Part shown: one piece after another, positions 10,079 through 40,580 of the stretch | Layout: each line of letters starts with the position of its first letter | How positions within the stretch are numbered: position 1 is the stretch's first letter | Assembly: GCA_026388655.1 (NCBI GenBank) | Contig: JAPLJI010000054.1 | Coordinates: 1-62,581 of the forward strand | Length of the DNA stretch: 62,581 bases | Reading direction: 5' to 3' | Source of the DNA: Pseudomonadota bacterium | GTDB taxonomy: Bacteria; Desulfobacterota; JAPLJL01 | The notes under the pieces: model-generated | Database searches by the model: none | Seen by the model: only the letters and a program-made list of their open reading frames with translations | Told to the model about the DNA's origin: nothing | Position numbers and translations under genes: made by a program

Positions 10079-11128
10079 ATGCCGCCAGTAAAAAAACTCT
10101 CCTTTCTTGACCGCTTCCTGACCCTCTGGATCTTCCTGGCCATGGGGATCGGGATCGGGGCCGGTTACTTCCTGCCCGCCGTGACCCGCTTCATCACCAG
10201 CCTCCAGGTCGGGACCACCTCCATCCCGATCGCCATTGGGCTAATCCTGATGATGTATCCGCCCCTGGCCAAGGTGAAGTATGAGGAGATGGGCAAGGTT
10301 TTTAAGAACAAGCGGCTTCTGATTATCTCTCTCCTTCAGAACTGGGTAATCGGCCCCTTGCTGATGTTTGTCCTCGCGATCATCTTCCTCCGGGACTATC
10401 CCGAATACATGATCGGGGTGATCCTGGTCGGGCTCGCCCGCTGTATCGCCATGGTTATCGTCTGGAACGAGCTTGCCGACGGCGACCGTGAGCTGGCGGT
10501 GGGGCTGGTGGCCTTCAACGCCATTTTTCAGGTCCTGTTTTATGCGGTGTATATCTATCTTTTCATCACCCTGGCCCTGAATTGGCTCGGCCTGGTCGAA
10601 GGACTGAACATCAGGGTTTCCATGTGGGAGGCAGCTAAGACCGTTTTCATTTTCCTCGGCATCCCCTTCCTGGCCGGGGTCATCACCAGGTTTTCCCTGC
10701 TCAAAGCCAAGGGCAAGGAGTGGTTTGAAAATGTCTTTGCCCCGAAAATCAGCCCCCTCACACTGGTGGCCCTCCTCTTCACCATCATCGTGATGTTCTC
10801 CCTCAAGGGGGAATATATCATCAAGGAACCCCTGGACGTCCTCCGGGTGGCGGTCCCGATGGGCTTTTACTTTTTCCTGATGTGGTTCGCCACCTTCTTT
10901 CTGGTGAAAAAAATCGGGGGGAATTACGGGCAGACGGTTGCCACCTCTTTCACCGCCTCGAGCAATGACTTTGAGCTGGCCATTGCCGTGGCCATCGCCA
11001 TCTTCGGGATCGAATCGAAGCAGGCCTTCGCCACCGTGATCGGACCCCTCCTCGAGGTGCCGATTCTTATCAGCCTGGTTAATGTAGCCTTGAGATTCAG
11101 GAAAAAATATTTTGGAGGGCAAGGGTGA
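10079..11128 (+). CDS. acr3: Arsenite efflux transporter Acr3
   Basis: 349 residues, about ten membrane helices, of the bile acid/arsenite/riboflavin transporter superfamily. Both family marks are present: the conserved Cys in [14 protein letters not shown] and the conserved Glu in [14 protein letters not shown]. Acr3 exports As(III) across the inner membrane by proton exchange. A ribosome site (AAGGAG) precedes the ATG. The stop codon overlaps the ATG of the small downstream ORF by one base. A decayed second copy of its 3' half is at 13850-14343. Confidence 0.95.
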
Positions 11129-11340
11129 TGCTCGAAATAAAAAAATCGGCGGTGGCTTTAGAGCCGGAGGAGGTCATGGAACTCGAACGGATAATAACCG
11201 ACCAGGATCGGGAGGCTGCTTTTGCCTTCCTGAAGAAATCCATCTACCAGAAGATTTCCCGCTCCCAGGGTGACCGGCTCCAATCCCACCTTGATTCCGG
11301 GGGAAATCCAGTGGAGAGATACCGGTCCCCCCGGAGTTGA
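11128..11340 (+). CDS. Small conserved protein coupled to acr3
   Basis: 70 residues from the ATG at 11128, which overlaps the acr3 stop by one base (TGATG), implying translational coupling. It starts [20 protein letters not shown] and is hydrophilic and helical, with no cysteines and no membrane segment. I do not recognise a family. A near-identical ORF at 14343 follows the decayed acr3 copy, so the two genes were duplicated together. It ends with a divergent tail, RYRSPRS. The 180 bases after it hold nothing I can identify. Confidence 0.7.
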   Translation: MLEIKKSAVALEPEEVMELERIITDQDREAAFAFLKKSIYQKISRSQGDRLQSHLDSGGNPVERYRSPRS

Positions 11341-14102: not shown

Positions 14103-14342
14103 ACCCTAGTGGCCCTGCTCTTCACGATTATCGTGATGTTCTCCCTGAAGGGTGACTACCTCCTTCACCGCCTCCAGCAATGATTTCGAGCTGGCTATCG
14201 CCGTGGCCATCGCCATCTTCGGGATCGAATCCAAGCAGGCCTTCGCCACCGTGATCGAACCCCTCCTCGAGGTGCCGATTCTCATCAGCCTGGTTAACGT
14301 GGCTTTAAGATTCAGGAAAAAATATTGGGGAGGCCAGAGCTG

Positions 14343-14549
14343 ATGCTTGAGATAAAAAAATCCGCGGTGGCTTTAGAGCCGGAGGAGGTTATGGAACTCG
14401 AACGGATAATAACCGACCATGATTTGGAGGGTGCCTTTGCCTTCTTGAAGAAATCCATCTACCAGAAGATCTCCCGCTCCCAGGGTGACCGGCTCCAATC
14501 CCACCTTGATTCCGGGGGTGATCCGGTGGAAAAATTCAAATCCCGGTAG
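14343..14549 (+). CDS. Second copy of the small acr3-linked protein
   Basis: 68 residues, nearly identical to the ORF at 11128 through QGDRLQSHLDSGG. It differs at a few positions (DHDLEG for DQDREA) and has a different last few residues (FKSR). The frame is fully open although the acr3 copy in front is wrecked. It starts by the same TGATG overlap. Whether it is expressed is unknown, since its natural upstream gene is broken. The 180 bases after it show no gene. Confidence 0.6.
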   Translation: MLEIKKSAVALEPEEVMELERIITDHDLEGAFAFLKKSIYQKISRSQGDRLQSHLDSGGDPVEKFKSR

Positions 14550-36844: not shown

Positions 36845-36880
36845 GATAAGGAAGTTAATGGAATGACTCCCCTTATATTT

Positions 36881-36953
36881 GTCATTCCCACGAAAGTGGG
36901 AATCCAGGCCTTCTTATTTGAAACAACTGGATCCCCGCTTCCGCGGGGATGAC
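36881..36953. repeat. Paired dRS3-like palindromic repeat, copy 3
   Basis: 73 bp: GTCATTCCCACGAAAGTGGG... then an AT spacer, then CTGGATCCCCGCTTCCGCGG...GATGAC. Its right end is 22 bases from the ATG of the FAH-family gene, and it supplies a spurious in-frame ATG to that gene. Confidence 0.82.
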
Positions 36954-36975: not shown

Positions 36976-38013
36976 ATGAAACTCCTGAACTTTAAATCCG
37001 CTGAAAACACCATCACCCAATTCGGCGTCGTCATCAATGATATTGTTGTATCTTTTGATACCCTACAATTCAAATTCGGCAGTAAATATCCTCAACTTTC
37101 CGATCTCAACTCCTATCTTCAGAATTTCCCTGCCAGCGAAGACCTGGCCCGGGAGCTTCAGAAAAAGGGGGAAAAGGAATTCGCTTCCCTGAAACCGGAA
37201 GAGAAATTTCTTCTGGATAAAATCAAAATCCTGCCCGCCATTCCCAATCCTCCCGCCCTTTTTGATTTCGGCCTCACCCCCAAACACCTTCGGAATTCCG
37301 CCCTCACCATGATGAAATACGAAATGAAGTGGCCTCTTTGTTGGCTGGCGAAGCTGTTTATCAAAGCCCAATACCGGAGAATGAAGAAACGAAAGAATTT
37401 CATTTACTACAAGGGCAATCACAACTCGATCATCGGCGACATGGACAGCCCCATTTGGCCCTTATACTCATCTTACCTTGATGTCGAGCCGGAGCTGGGG
37501 ATCATTGTGGGAAAAGCCCCGTTTCATATGTCACAAGACGATCTCAAGCGATCCATCGCGGGGTATGTAATTTTCAACGATTTTTCCGCCCGTGACATTC
37601 AGTTTCCGGAGATGCGGCAATTTTTAGGCCCGGCCCGGAGCAAGGATTTTGAGAAAGGCAACGGGCTCGGCCCATTTCTGGTTACAACCGACGAGATAGG
37701 CGATCCCTTAAACCTGGATGTTACAATTAAAATCGGGGAAAGATACACCTGGAAAGGCACCACTCAAGACATCATCGCCCAGCCGACTGAAGTAATCCGG
37801 CATCTGACCACTTTCCGGTCTCTTCCGCCCGGGACGGTGATCGGGATGGGAACCATCCCCGGTTGTTGCGGCCTGGACCGTGACGAATGGCTGGAGCCTG
37901 GTGATTTAATCCAAATCACCTTCGACAAACTGGGAACCTTGAGGCATCCAATCCCAAAGGATATAGGACCTCTTGAACCAACGCGGTGGAAGGCTAGAAA
38001 AAACCTGAAATAA
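36976..38013 (+). CDS. Fumarylacetoacetate hydrolase (FAH) family protein
   Basis: 345 residues from the ATG at 36976; the ATG at 36949 lies in a dispersed repeat and is rejected. The FAH fold is shown by YYKGNHNSIIG, the metal-binding EPELGIIVGKA (Glu pair), GYVIFNDFSARDIQ, and TIPGCCGLDRDEWLEPGDLI. Members hydrolyse or decarboxylate beta-diketo or hydroxymuconate compounds with Mg2+. A diverged second copy of its last 34 codons is at 38828, on the far side of a PIN-domain pair. Confidence 0.87.
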   Translation: MKLLNFKSAENTITQFGVVINDIVVSFDTLQFKFGSKYPQLSDLNSYLQNFPASEDLARELQKKGEKEFASLKPEEKFLLDKIKILPAIPNPPALFDFGLTPKHLRNSALTMMKYEMKWPLCWLAKLFIKAQYRRMKKRKNFIYYKGNHNSIIGDMDSPIWPLYSSYLDVEPELGIIVGKAPFHMSQDDLKRSIAGYVIFNDFSARDIQFPEMRQFLGPARSKDFEKGNGLGPFLVTTDEIGDPLNLDVTIKIGERYTWKGTTQDIIAQPTEVIRHLTTFRSLPPGTVIGMGTIPGCCGLDRDEWLEPGDLIQITFDKLGTLRHPIPKDIGPLEPTRWKARKNLK

Positions 38014-38135
38014 ACCCAAATCAGATACAATTTAATTAAATGCCCCCTCTCTGGATTAAGAATTTAAATTTTAACCAGTACCGTAAAAACATTTCTTTTC
38101 TAACATCAGAAAAAGTCTTATAATAACTCTTAATT

Positions 38136-38576
38136 ATGATAATTTACTTGGATATTTGCTGCTTGAAACGGCCTTTTGATGATCAGTCCAAGCCAAGGAT
38201 CCGGGCTGAGTCCAGGGCAATTGCCTCCATCCTAGAAGCTGTTGAGGAAGGTGATTACCAATTAATACGATCCCCCGCCTTGGATTTCGAAAATTCCCGC
38301 AACCCGGTTGAAAATCGTCGTTTGATTGTTGAAACCTGGCTTGAAAAATTCAGCAAAAAAATACCTCTATCTCCAGAAGTCGAAAAAAGGGCTTTTGAAT
38401 TGAATAATAAAGGGATAAGACCGCTGGATGCTTATCACATCGCCTTTGCGGAGAAATCCCAAGCCGTTTTCTATATAACCTGCGATTATAGGCTATTAAA
38501 AATCCGCCATGAGCTTAAAGATGACCTTAAAACCAAGGTGATTAACCCGACTGAATTAATAATCCGGAGGATATAA
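38136..38576 (+). CDS. PIN-domain ribonuclease, VapC-like toxin candidate
   Basis: 146 residues. It opens with IIYLDICCLKRPFDD (first acidic residue) and later has PLDAYHIAFAEKSQ and ITCDYRLLK, the acidic positions of the PIN nuclease fold. The base composition is more AT-rich than most neighbours. The stop is 2 bases before the next ATG. PIN plus a small partner gene suggests a toxin-antitoxin pair with the toxin first, the reverse of the usual order. Confidence 0.82.
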   Translation: MIIYLDICCLKRPFDDQSKPRIRAESRAIASILEAVEEGDYQLIRSPALDFENSRNPVENRRLIVETWLEKFSKKIPLSPEVEKRAFELNNKGIRPLDAYHIAFAEKSQAVFYITCDYRLLKIRHELKDDLKTKVINPTELIIRRI

Positions 38577-38578
38577 CC

Positions 38579-38794
38579 ATGCGAAAGTCCCTGGAACTTA
38601 GTGACCCCGAGATTCGACAAGAAGGTTGGAAGGTATTAACTCAAAGGCTTGGTCTTTCCGGCGCTATGCGGTTTCTGCTTCAGTATGAACAAGGATATAA
38701 CGACTATTCAAAAGAACGCGAAGAACTTTTTCAAGATCTAAAAATTAACGATTTGACAAAAGAATTAAGAAAACGGAAAAATCCCAAGCCGTAA
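38579..38794 (+). CDS. Small partner of the PIN protein, candidate antitoxin
   Basis: 71 residues, good ribosome site (GGAGG). It is charged and helical: MRKSLELSDPEIRQEGWKVL then LGLSGAMRFLLQYEQGYNDY and a lysine-rich tail. I do not recognise a named antitoxin family. Tight coupling to the PIN gene is the only evidence for an antitoxin role. Confidence 0.65.
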   Translation: MRKSLELSDPEIRQEGWKVLTQRLGLSGAMRFLLQYEQGYNDYSKEREELFQDLKINDLTKELRKRKNPKP

Positions 38795-38827
38795 AAACCA
38801 CGTTAACATAATTGACTTTTAAACCCC

Positions 38828-38932
38828 ACTGACCACAATCATCTTCGATAAACCCGTTACTCTCCGCCGCCCGATCCCAAAGAATATCGGCCCTCTTGAA
38901 CCCACCCGCTGGAAACCCCGCAATTTATTGTA
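38828..38932 (+). pseudogene. Orphan 3' fragment of an FAH-family gene
   Basis: 34 codons and a TAG read LTTIIFDKPVTLRRPIPKNI then GPLEPTRWKPRNLL, closely matching the end of the intact gene (ITFDKLGTLRHPIPKDIGPL, EPTRWKARKNLK). No upstream part exists. Together with the intact gene it brackets the PIN pair as a direct repeat of about 100 bp. Confidence 0.82.
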
Positions 38933-39063
38933 GTCTGCCGATTCATCGGCGGTTTTCAAAAGCGCCCGATCCCTACGTTGTTGGGATAAACCCCTCTGAA
39001 GTCGAGACAAGTAAATCGGGAAACTAAAAAGATTTCAAAGATTTATTTATTAAAATTATTCTG

Positions 39064-39114
39064 TGGAGTGCATCGGCTTGCCGATGCATTGCATTAGCAA
39101 GCTAATGCGCTCCA
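39064..39114. repeat. Twin-palindrome REP-like element, copy 1
   Basis: Two adjacent near-perfect hairpins, GCATCGGCTTGCCGATGC and GCATTAGCAAGCTAATGC, are bounded by TGGAG and CTCCA. A related, rearranged copy is at 53591-53666. The surrounding 38933-39275 spacer also has a GCCGATTCATCGGC hairpin and no gene. Confidence 0.8.
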
Positions 39115-39275
39115 TAAAAACATCCGGCGGGATTATATTAAGCTTGAAGTCTGGCGGCTAGTTTTTCTGAAGAAATCTTTTCGCGTCTTATTTTAGAATG
39201 AAAAAGATCACCAAACACCAAAGTAAAGACCTGACCCCGGAATTTCGAGCCTGTTCCTACGGTCTTTTTTGGCCT

Positions 39276-40580
39276 TCAGCTTTTTCTTATTGCCACATTT
39301 CGTCCGGGTTCATGTGTGTTGTGTTTTCTCCGATACCCGATGTTCCCACTCAGGTAAAGGAACGGATGGCTCCGGTTCTCCCAAAACCTCCGGAGAATCT
39401 CAGCGGGCTTGAAAAACTCCCTTCCCACCCAGTCGGAGCCCGCCTGCAGTTCCTCCGGCGACATCTTCAGCGGGTGGAAGACCACGCTTCCGCAGTCGTA
39501 CTTGGACCAATCCTTTTCGAAGATCCTCCCCTCCTTTTCCATTTGTTCATAAAGGATCGTCCCCGGAAAAGGGGTCAGGATGCTGAAGTTGGCGTAAGCG
39601 ATCTTGTTTTTTTTGTAGAAATCCAGCATCTGTTCGAAGATATTCTTGTCATCCGTGTCAAAACCGAAAACCGTCCCGGCGATAATGTGGATCCCCGCCC
39701 GATGAATTTGCTTGATGAGCGCGGCGTAATCCTCCACTTTGTTGCATTTTTTATTGGCCTGTTTGATTGATTTTCGATTCACGCTTTCAATCCCGATAAA
39801 AAGCCCCAGGCAGCCGCTTTGGCCCGCCAGTTCCACCAGTTCCCGGTCCTGGGCAAAGCCCAGAATCGCCTGCCCCCCCCATTTGATTTTCAGCGGGATC
39901 AATTTAGTGAAGAGTTCCTTGGCGAATTTCGGGTTGCCGACGATATTATCGTCCACGAAAAAGAAATATTTATCTCCGGAAAGTTTTATCTCCGTGATGA
40001 TTTCGTCCACGGGCCGGGAACGAAACTTGGGACCGTAAAATTTCGTGACGCTGCAGAAGGTACATCGATAGGGGCACCCGCGCGAGGCCTGGACGGGTGT
40101 GTAGAACATCTTATTCTTAACCAGATCGTATTTGGGGGATGGCATGTTTCTCAGGTGAAAGAATTCTTCGCTCCGGTAGATTTTTTTAAGCTCCCCGCGT
40201 TTAAGATCGGTGATAACACTATCCCAGACACATTCCGCCTCGCCCACAACCACGGAATCAAAATGCGCCGCGGCTTCGTCGGGCAGGCTGGAAGGATGGA
40301 TCCCCCCCGCGATGGTGATCACCCCTTTCTTCCGAAATTCCCGGGCGATTTCATATCCTCTCTTAGCCTGGGCGGTCATCATGCTTACTCCCGCCACCGA
40401 ACCTCGGCCGAGGTTGAAATCGATTTCCTCCACTTCTTCGTCGGTTATTTGAACCTCGATCTCGGGCGGGCAAAGCGCGGCTACGAGGGGAAGGGTGAGC
40501 TGCGGGATCCTTCGGCCCTTTTCCATCCGCATTTCTTTGTAGAGCGGATAAATAAGTTCTATCTTTCCCGTGAATCCCAT
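39276..40580 (-). CDS. B12-binding-type radical SAM protein
   Basis: 434 residues. The N-terminal ~130 residues resemble a cobalamin-binding fold (GVSMMTAQAKRGYEIAREF, IAGGIHPSSLPDEAA) but no DxHxxG is seen. The radical SAM core has CPYRCTFC (CxxxCxxC) after QASRGC, then FFFVDDNIVGNP. The C-terminus (HPLKMSPEELQAG) matches the usual tail. Class B-type methylases and rearrangement enzymes share this layout; the substrate is unknown. Nothing nearby identifies it. Confidence 0.87.
   Translation of the reverse strand: MGFTGKIELIYPLYKEMRMEKGRRIPQLTLPLVAALCPPEIEVQITDEEVEEIDFNLGRGSVAGVSMMTAQAKRGYEIAREFRKKGVITIAGGIHPSSLPDEAAAHFDSVVVGEAECVWDSVITDLKRGELKKIYRSEEFFHLRNMPSPKYDLVKNKMFYTPVQASRGCPYRCTFCSVTKFYGPKFRSRPVDEIITEIKLSGDKYFFFVDDNIVGNPKFAKELFTKLIPLKIKWGGQAILGFAQDRELVELAGQSGCLGLFIGIESVNRKSIKQANKKCNKVEDYAALIKQIHRAGIHIIAGTVFGFDTDDKNIFEQMLDFYKKNKIAYANFSILTPFPGTILYEQMEKEGRIFEKDWSKYDCGSVVFHPLKMSPEELQAGSDWVGREFFKPAEILRRFWENRSHPFLYLSGNIGYRRKHNTHEPGRNVAIRKS

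What the first reader, a model, noticed from the sequence alone, without database searches (positions are those of the whole stretch)
37910..38932. PIN toxin pair flanked by a duplicated FAH gene end
The intact FAH gene ends at 38013; the PIN pair follows; a diverged copy of the last 34 FAH codons ends at 38932. Elements that integrate into the 3' end of a gene often bring a replacement 3' end, leaving the old end beyond the insert. The pair is also more AT-rich than its surroundings. Here the insert would be only about 0.9 kb.
Basis: partly seen in the sequence, partly recalled or inferred. Interest (0 to 1): 0.56.

Follow-up and report, generated by a model that had tools for sequence, protein, structure and literature searches.

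The report
Toxin pair between two gene ends
A small bacterial toxin-partner gene pair sits between the intact end of a neighbouring gene and a second, differently evolved copy of that end; the same layout recurs around toxin pairs in other genomes, which suggests that such pairs slip in at gene ends and then resist removal.

Summary
The intact FAH gene (36976-38013), an AT-rich PIN-partner pair (38136-38794) and a second FAH 3' end (38838-38921, stop at 38933) lie as described; the two ends are 923 bp apart and 74% identical. The two ends differ mostly at third codon positions (16 of 25), so each was part of a working gene for most of their separation: an in-place duplication that then decayed does not fit. 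The only close relative has one uninterrupted FAH; the downstream copy resembles it more at silent sites than the intact end does. The layout recurs. Direct repeats flank this PIN pair in 6 of 36 other loci (0.7 expected locally) and MazF in 5 of 37 (1.0 expected), but a non-toxin small gene in 1 of 38 (1.8 expected). Five of those 11 are clear copies of a neighbouring gene's end, one in this same genome. Best reading: toxin-antitoxin DNA entered by recombination anchored in a gene end, and the repeat survives because its loss would delete the antitoxin. Inferred, not shown.

The parts
36976..38013 (+). intact FAH-family hydrolase gene (an upstream ATG at 36949 is also possible)
   Evidence: PF01557 E 1.6e-42; 75% identical to G002 orthologue
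37915..37998 (+). end of the intact FAH gene that is repeated downstream (codons 314-341)
38014..38836 (.). stretch between the two FAH ends; 38.9% GC
38136..38576 (+). PIN-domain protein, putative toxin, 146 aa
   Evidence: PF01850 E 1.7e-5; acidic residues D6, E52, D98, D117 invariant in 15 relatives
38579..38794 (+). 71-aa partner, putative antitoxin, no Pfam, NCBIfam or PADLOC match
   Evidence: similar small ORF behind PIN in 28 of 29 loci
38838..38921 (+). second FAH 3' end, in frame, stop at 38931-38933
38923..39127 (.). two dispersed intergenic repeats directly behind the copy, tens of matches in each genome of the genus
39276..40580 (-). radical SAM gene, first gene beyond the copy; 91% identical in G001

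Best explanation
A toxin-antitoxin-like PIN pair entered by recombination anchored in the 3' end of FAH. Incoming DNA from a relative carried its own version of the FAH end joined to the pair; it crossed over in the FAH end (single crossover of a circle, or homologous on one side and non-homologous on the other), leaving two lineage-different FAH ends around the pair. The direct repeat would normally be lost by RecA-type deletion, but that deletion also removes the pair, so loss of antitoxin would select against it and the repeat has persisted and diverged. Shown: the layout, the constraint history of the two ends, the foreign composition, and the excess of flanking direct repeats around two toxin families. 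Inferred: the donor, the crossover, that the pair is an active toxin-antitoxin module, and that it protects the repeat.
For: Intact end versus copy differ 5/4/16 at codon positions 1/2/3 (p 0.0016), so the two ends diverged as functional sequence. Copy versus G002 4/4/10 (p 0.043). Same pattern at L125, where a methyltransferase end flanks a PIN pair: 1/0/7 (p 0.0026). At the helicase-MazF locus in this genome (L178) the two ends are identical over 66 nt, then differ at 18 of the last 42. Flanking direct repeats: PIN 6/36 versus 0.72 expected, printed p 0.0 from 50,000 simulations; MazF 5/37 versus 1.04, p 0.0013; control 1/38 versus 1.77; stable over 18 settings. The pair occurs in only 3 loci of the viral collection, so it is not common phage cargo there.
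Against: Only one close relative with FAH, whose downstream genes also differ, so the native end cannot be proved. FAH as a whole is patchily diverged from G002 (fourfold 61/112 against 0.22-0.41 in plausible neighbouring genes), so the end is not uniquely odd. At L178 the intact gene keeps the native-like end, which a plain single crossover does not predict. At L113 (2/3/3) and the first L097 piece (2/2/4) there is no third-position excess. Not all 11 repeats are gene ends: some are MITE-like, dispersed, low-complexity, paralogous or uncertain. Pooled toxin loci against the one control family gives only p 0.055 (11/73 versus 1/38). No toxicity data.
Confidence: 0.42

Rival explanations
1. The copy is the last remnant of a separate, tandem FAH paralogue, most of which was deleted; the PIN pair lies between two paralogues by chance or replaced most of the second.
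For: The two ends diverged under protein constraint, which a long-functional paralogue also predicts. L117 shows N- and C-terminal pieces of a second copy of the upstream gene beyond a PIN pair. Tandem paralogues occur elsewhere in this genome.
Against: G002 has one FAH of this kind and the own genome has no other. In the clear gene-end cases the remnant is the end that adjoins the pair, which random decay would not favour.
Confidence: 0.25
2. A small integrase-dependent element (integrase in trans or lost) integrated at an attB in the FAH 3' end and brought a replacement end.
For: The layout matches; the copy is closer to G002 at silent sites; the insert is the most AT-rich stretch of its length.
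Against: No integrase in the insert; no exact core; different target genes and repeat lengths of about 80-290 bp in related loci; at L178 the intact gene has the native-like end.
Confidence: 0.12
3. Insertion with long target duplication, as described for restriction-modification genes: about 100 bp of target is duplicated in place and one copy then decays.
For: Repeat length and the selfish-gene context fit (PMC1643837 and PMC3874152, passages read). L113 shows no third-position excess.
Against: In the window and L125 the copies differ mainly at third positions, so both were under constraint while diverging.
Confidence: 0.08
4. Toxin pairs simply lie in recombination-prone, repeat-rich regions, and the flanking repeats have nothing to do with their entry or upkeep.
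For: Some flanking repeats are MITE-like or dispersed; the FAH-DUF2804 interval differs in all three genomes of the genus.
Against: The background was drawn from the same contig pieces, and a small accessory gene in the same phylum shows no excess.
Confidence: 0.13

Closest known systems
Insertion of restriction-modification genes with long target duplication (Helicobacter pylori; Nobusato et al. 2000, seen only through passages in PMC1643837 and PMC3874152)
   Same: selfish gene unit without its own transposase, flanked by direct repeats of the order of 100 bp
   Different: here toxin-antitoxin-like pairs, and in the window and L125 the two copies are lineage-different gene ends, not an in-place duplicate
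Integrative elements at gene 3' ends (SGI1 at trmE; named in the abstract start of PMC8409611)
   Same: foreign DNA at a gene 3' end with two gene ends around it
   Different: no integrase, about 0.9 kb, no exact core, native end not always displaced
Toxin-antitoxin loci that lessen large deletions (Szekeres et al. 2007; seen only as a reference-list entry)
   Same: proposed role of addiction in preventing loss of flanked DNA
   Different: not shown experimentally here; the flanked unit is the pair itself
Homology-facilitated illegitimate recombination (abstract start of PMC3240628)
   Same: one homologous and one non-homologous junction gives a hybrid gene end next to new DNA
   Different: junctions here are inferred from one old event

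Membership tests
PIN-domain toxin-antitoxin pair | PIN domain with conserved acidic residues | tested here: met
   PF01850 25.9 bits over cut-off 23.6; D6, E52, D98, D117 invariant in 15 (that these are the catalytic acids is recalled)
PIN-domain toxin-antitoxin pair | conserved small partner gene in operon | tested here: met
   similar ORF directly downstream in 28 of 29 loci, 27 of them with alignment score 57 or more (best of several candidate ORFs, no null run); a small hypothetical gene also follows PIN in two cyanobacterial plasmids and one Butyrivibrio plasmid by annotation
PIN-domain toxin-antitoxin pair | toxin inhibits growth and partner neutralises it | not testable with these tools
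   needs expression
Known VapB-type antitoxin families | partner matches a described antitoxin family | tested here: not met
   no Pfam, NCBIfam or PADLOC hit for the window partner and none in Pfam for 12 of 12 members
Integrase-type element at a gene 3' end | integrase or excisionase in the insert | tested here: not met
   the PIN and partner ORFs are the only ORFs of 60 aa or more on the + strand within 38014-38836; the - strand list holds only a 44-aa ORF there and two that reach in from outside
Integrase-type element at a gene 3' end | intact gene carries the element's end and the far copy is native | tested here: inconclusive
   window leans that way; L178 leans the other way
R-M-like insertion with long target duplication | direct repeats of the order of 100 bp around the unit | tested here: met
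   78-84 bp here
R-M-like insertion with long target duplication | the two copies arose by in-place duplication | tested here: not met
   third-position excess 16 of 25, p 0.0016
Remnant of a FAH paralogue | a relative keeps the full second gene | tested here: inconclusive
   one informative relative, which has a single FAH; G001 has no FAH match (82% complete)

The most novel reading that the evidence does not exclude
Toxin-antitoxin pairs act as one-way ratchets in chromosomes: any pair that enters by recombination in a gene end leaves a direct repeat that cannot be deleted without losing the antitoxin, so unrelated toxin families carry, around them, fossil pairs of lineage-different gene ends that record how and from what kind of donor they came.
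Probability: 0.3. Interest if true: 0.72.

Novelty: new variant of a known kind. Interest (0 to 1): 0.52.

Why it matters
How solitary chromosomal toxin-antitoxin genes move without a transposase, and why they persist, is an open question. If their flanks hold lineage-different ends of the neighbouring gene, the entry route can be read from sequence in any genome collection, and the idea that addiction protects flanking repeats becomes a countable prediction and a simple deletion assay.

Tried and rejected
A single-protein scan of genome contigs found no relative; the second scan found only the contig already known as G002:C44. The pair in viral contigs gave 3 loci, not used further. PDB sequence searches gave nothing for the PIN profile at E 0.01 and only weak, unrelated-looking matches for the partner. 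I first thought that the intact FAH end was uniquely recoded against G002; a two-state scan showed similar patches along the whole gene, so that argument was dropped and only the three-way comparison of the ends was kept. The first flank comparison used short loci and a FAH control (26 loci, 4 with hits, mostly short); it was replaced by pieces of up to 20 kb with local background. Dropped rows: 6 of 46 non-own PIN matches were not fetched as pieces (among them G295:C71 = L069, which has a 173-bp 95% flanking repeat but lies on a 3.4-kb contig); 4 of 40 PIN, 3 of 40 MazF and 2 of 40 control pieces were too close to a contig end. MazF and control pieces were picked by hand from the top of the listed matches, most of them with room on both sides. 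Background positions are sliding windows, not genes, and overlap each other, so only the local rate is used. Whether a repeat is a gene end was judged by eye, for toxin loci only.

Full report
What is there. The FAH-family gene (36976-38013), a PIN ORF (38136-38576), a 71-aa partner ORF (38579-38794) and a second FAH end (38838-38921, in frame to a stop at 38933) lie in one line. FAH matches PF01557 and the PIN ORF PF01850. In the 3.56-Mb assembly the FAH protein matches only its own gene and the copy; the PIN and the partner match only themselves. The stretch between the ends has 38.9% GC against 57.4% for the window, at the very bottom of 1236 windows of its length.

Relatives. Of 99 genomes searched, one other (G002, same genus; it is contig JAQTNV010000044.1, isolate STA_72) has a close FAH, 75% identical over 344 residues. 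The next best are 36%. G002 has one uninterrupted FAH; upstream synteny runs up to it at about 80% DNA identity, downstream other genes follow, and synteny resumes at DUF2804. G001 has no FAH match but keeps the radical SAM and DUF2804 genes, with other small genes next to them, among them one that looks like a HEPN protein by recall. So the FAH-DUF2804 interval is variable in all three.

Which end is native. Over codons 314-341 the intact end (A), the G002 end (B) and the copy (C) differ as follows: amino acids A-B 2, A-C 6, B-C 6 of 28; fourfold sites A-B 10/11, A-C 6/9, B-C 5/12; third-position singletons A 10, B 4, C 2. C has 57% GC, as has the G002 end, against 45.5% for the A end (counted to its stop). 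C therefore looks more like the native end at silent sites, A at the protein level. The sample is 28 codons, and FAH as a whole is patchily diverged from G002, so this stays a lean.

How the two ends came to differ. If the copy had been made in place and then decayed, differences should fall evenly on codon positions. They do not: A-C 5/4/16, B-C 4/4/10. Both ends were part of working genes for most of their separation. That speaks for two lineages of FAH (or two paralogues) brought together, and against an in-place target duplication.

Is it a one-off? The PIN pair occurs in 40 of 395 genomes of the phylum including the own one, with a similar small ORF behind the PIN gene in 28 of 29 loci looked at (12 partners aligned, 15 PIN proteins). 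I fetched pieces of up to 20 kb around 40 of the 46 non-own matches and asked how often a same-strand repeat of 60 bp or more flanks the pair within 1.5 kb: 6 of 36 usable, against 28 of 1704 sliding positions on the same pieces. The same test gives 5 of 37 for MazF (expected 1.04) and 1 of 38 for a small accessory gene family, PF05635 (expected 1.77). The excess holds over 18 combinations of flank, length and exclusion of multi-copy repeats: PIN p at most 0.0003, MazF at most 0.042, control never below 0.47. A translated version gives 6 of 36 against 1.8, p 0.0016, partly other loci. The discovery locus is not in these counts.

What the repeats are. PIN: L125, 81-bp copy of the end of an intact 876-aa gene that reads as a DNA methyltransferase, beyond the pair, with a 2-base frameshift; L097, two pieces of the 3' region of an intact right-hand gene that reads as radical SAM, on the left; L113, a 140-bp 3' tail on both sides; L100, the 5' end of the intact right-hand gene on the left, plus MITE-like 135-bp repeats hugging the pair; L104, a tail-like 100-bp repeat of uncertain kind; L108, a dispersed repeat. 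MazF: L178 lies in this same genome and has a DinG-like helicase end, a small ORF, an antitoxin-like ORF, MazF, a HicB-like ORF and then a second helicase end (family names other than MazF recalled); the other four (L185, L191, L193, L206) are paralogous, low-complexity, small-gene or non-coding repeats. So 5 of the 11 are clear gene ends (L097, L100, L113, L125, L178).

Two of these repeat the window's signature. L125: 1/0/7 by codon position, p 0.0026. L178: identical over 66 nt, then 18 of 42 different, both in frame with their own stops. There the intact gene matches G001 more closely (7 against 15 of 42 differences) and its alignment to G001 runs 25 nt beyond the stop, so here the copy is the stranger. 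L113 and the first L097 piece show no third-position excess; the second L097 piece does (6/8/15, p 0.031).

Own-genome survey. In 457 kb of this genome (20 pieces, the window and L178), 27 raw direct-repeat pairs turned up. Among the low-copy ones many are tandem paralogues; the two that I could see enclose a toxin pair are the window's and L178's. Non-toxin cases exist as well (window 10943-11315/14158-14530; L251 642-952/3663-3973, 96%).

Reading. The layout fits recombination anchored in a gene end, with the repeat kept because its deletion would remove the antitoxin. The first half rests on the codon-position test and the recurrence; the second on the toxin-only excess and on general knowledge of addiction. 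Neither is proved. The paralogue reading remains open for this locus, and the variable direction of 'native' and 'foreign' argues against a strict integrase scheme.

Literature. Closest is insertion of restriction-modification genes with long target duplications (passages of PMC1643837 and PMC3874152 read; the original of 2000 not seen). Searches for toxin-antitoxin with direct repeats, target duplication, flanked by direct repeats, partial duplication and flanking genes listed nothing whose title or abstract start describes lineage-different gene ends around toxin pairs; beyond passages of PMC2654758 and PMC3031569 I read no further papers on this, and the library lacks most subscription journals.

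Noticed in passing
window 10943-11315 and 14158-14530: 373-bp direct repeat at 91% that includes a gene's 3' end and the start of the next ORF, around about 2.8 kb with other genes; no toxin pair seen.
   Followed up: partly
window 38923-39044 and 39036-39127: Two dispersed intergenic repeat families directly behind the FAH copy, tens of matches in each genome of the genus.
   Followed up: partly
L100 7724-7857 and 8525-8659: PIN pair bracketed closely by MITE-like 135-bp repeats with terminal inverted repeats, 93% alike: a composite-transposon-like unit.
   Followed up: no
window 36976-38010 against L032: FAH is patchily diverged between the two species: codons 61-90 have 0 of 11 fourfold differences, others 9 of 11; possible repeated gene conversion.
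   Followed up: no
window 38579-38794 and L061-L089: The roughly 70-aa partner (LG..A.RF......G..DY pattern) is a widespread family without a Pfam match; it lies downstream of the PIN gene.
   Followed up: partly
L251 642-952 and 3663-3973: 311-bp repeat at 96% around an ORF that looks like a REP-associated transposase (name recalled) and small ORFs.
   Followed up: no
window 36870-36950: Inverted GGGAATCCAG / CTGGATCCCC type repeat just upstream of FAH; the G002 FAH has a different short repeat there.
   Followed up: no
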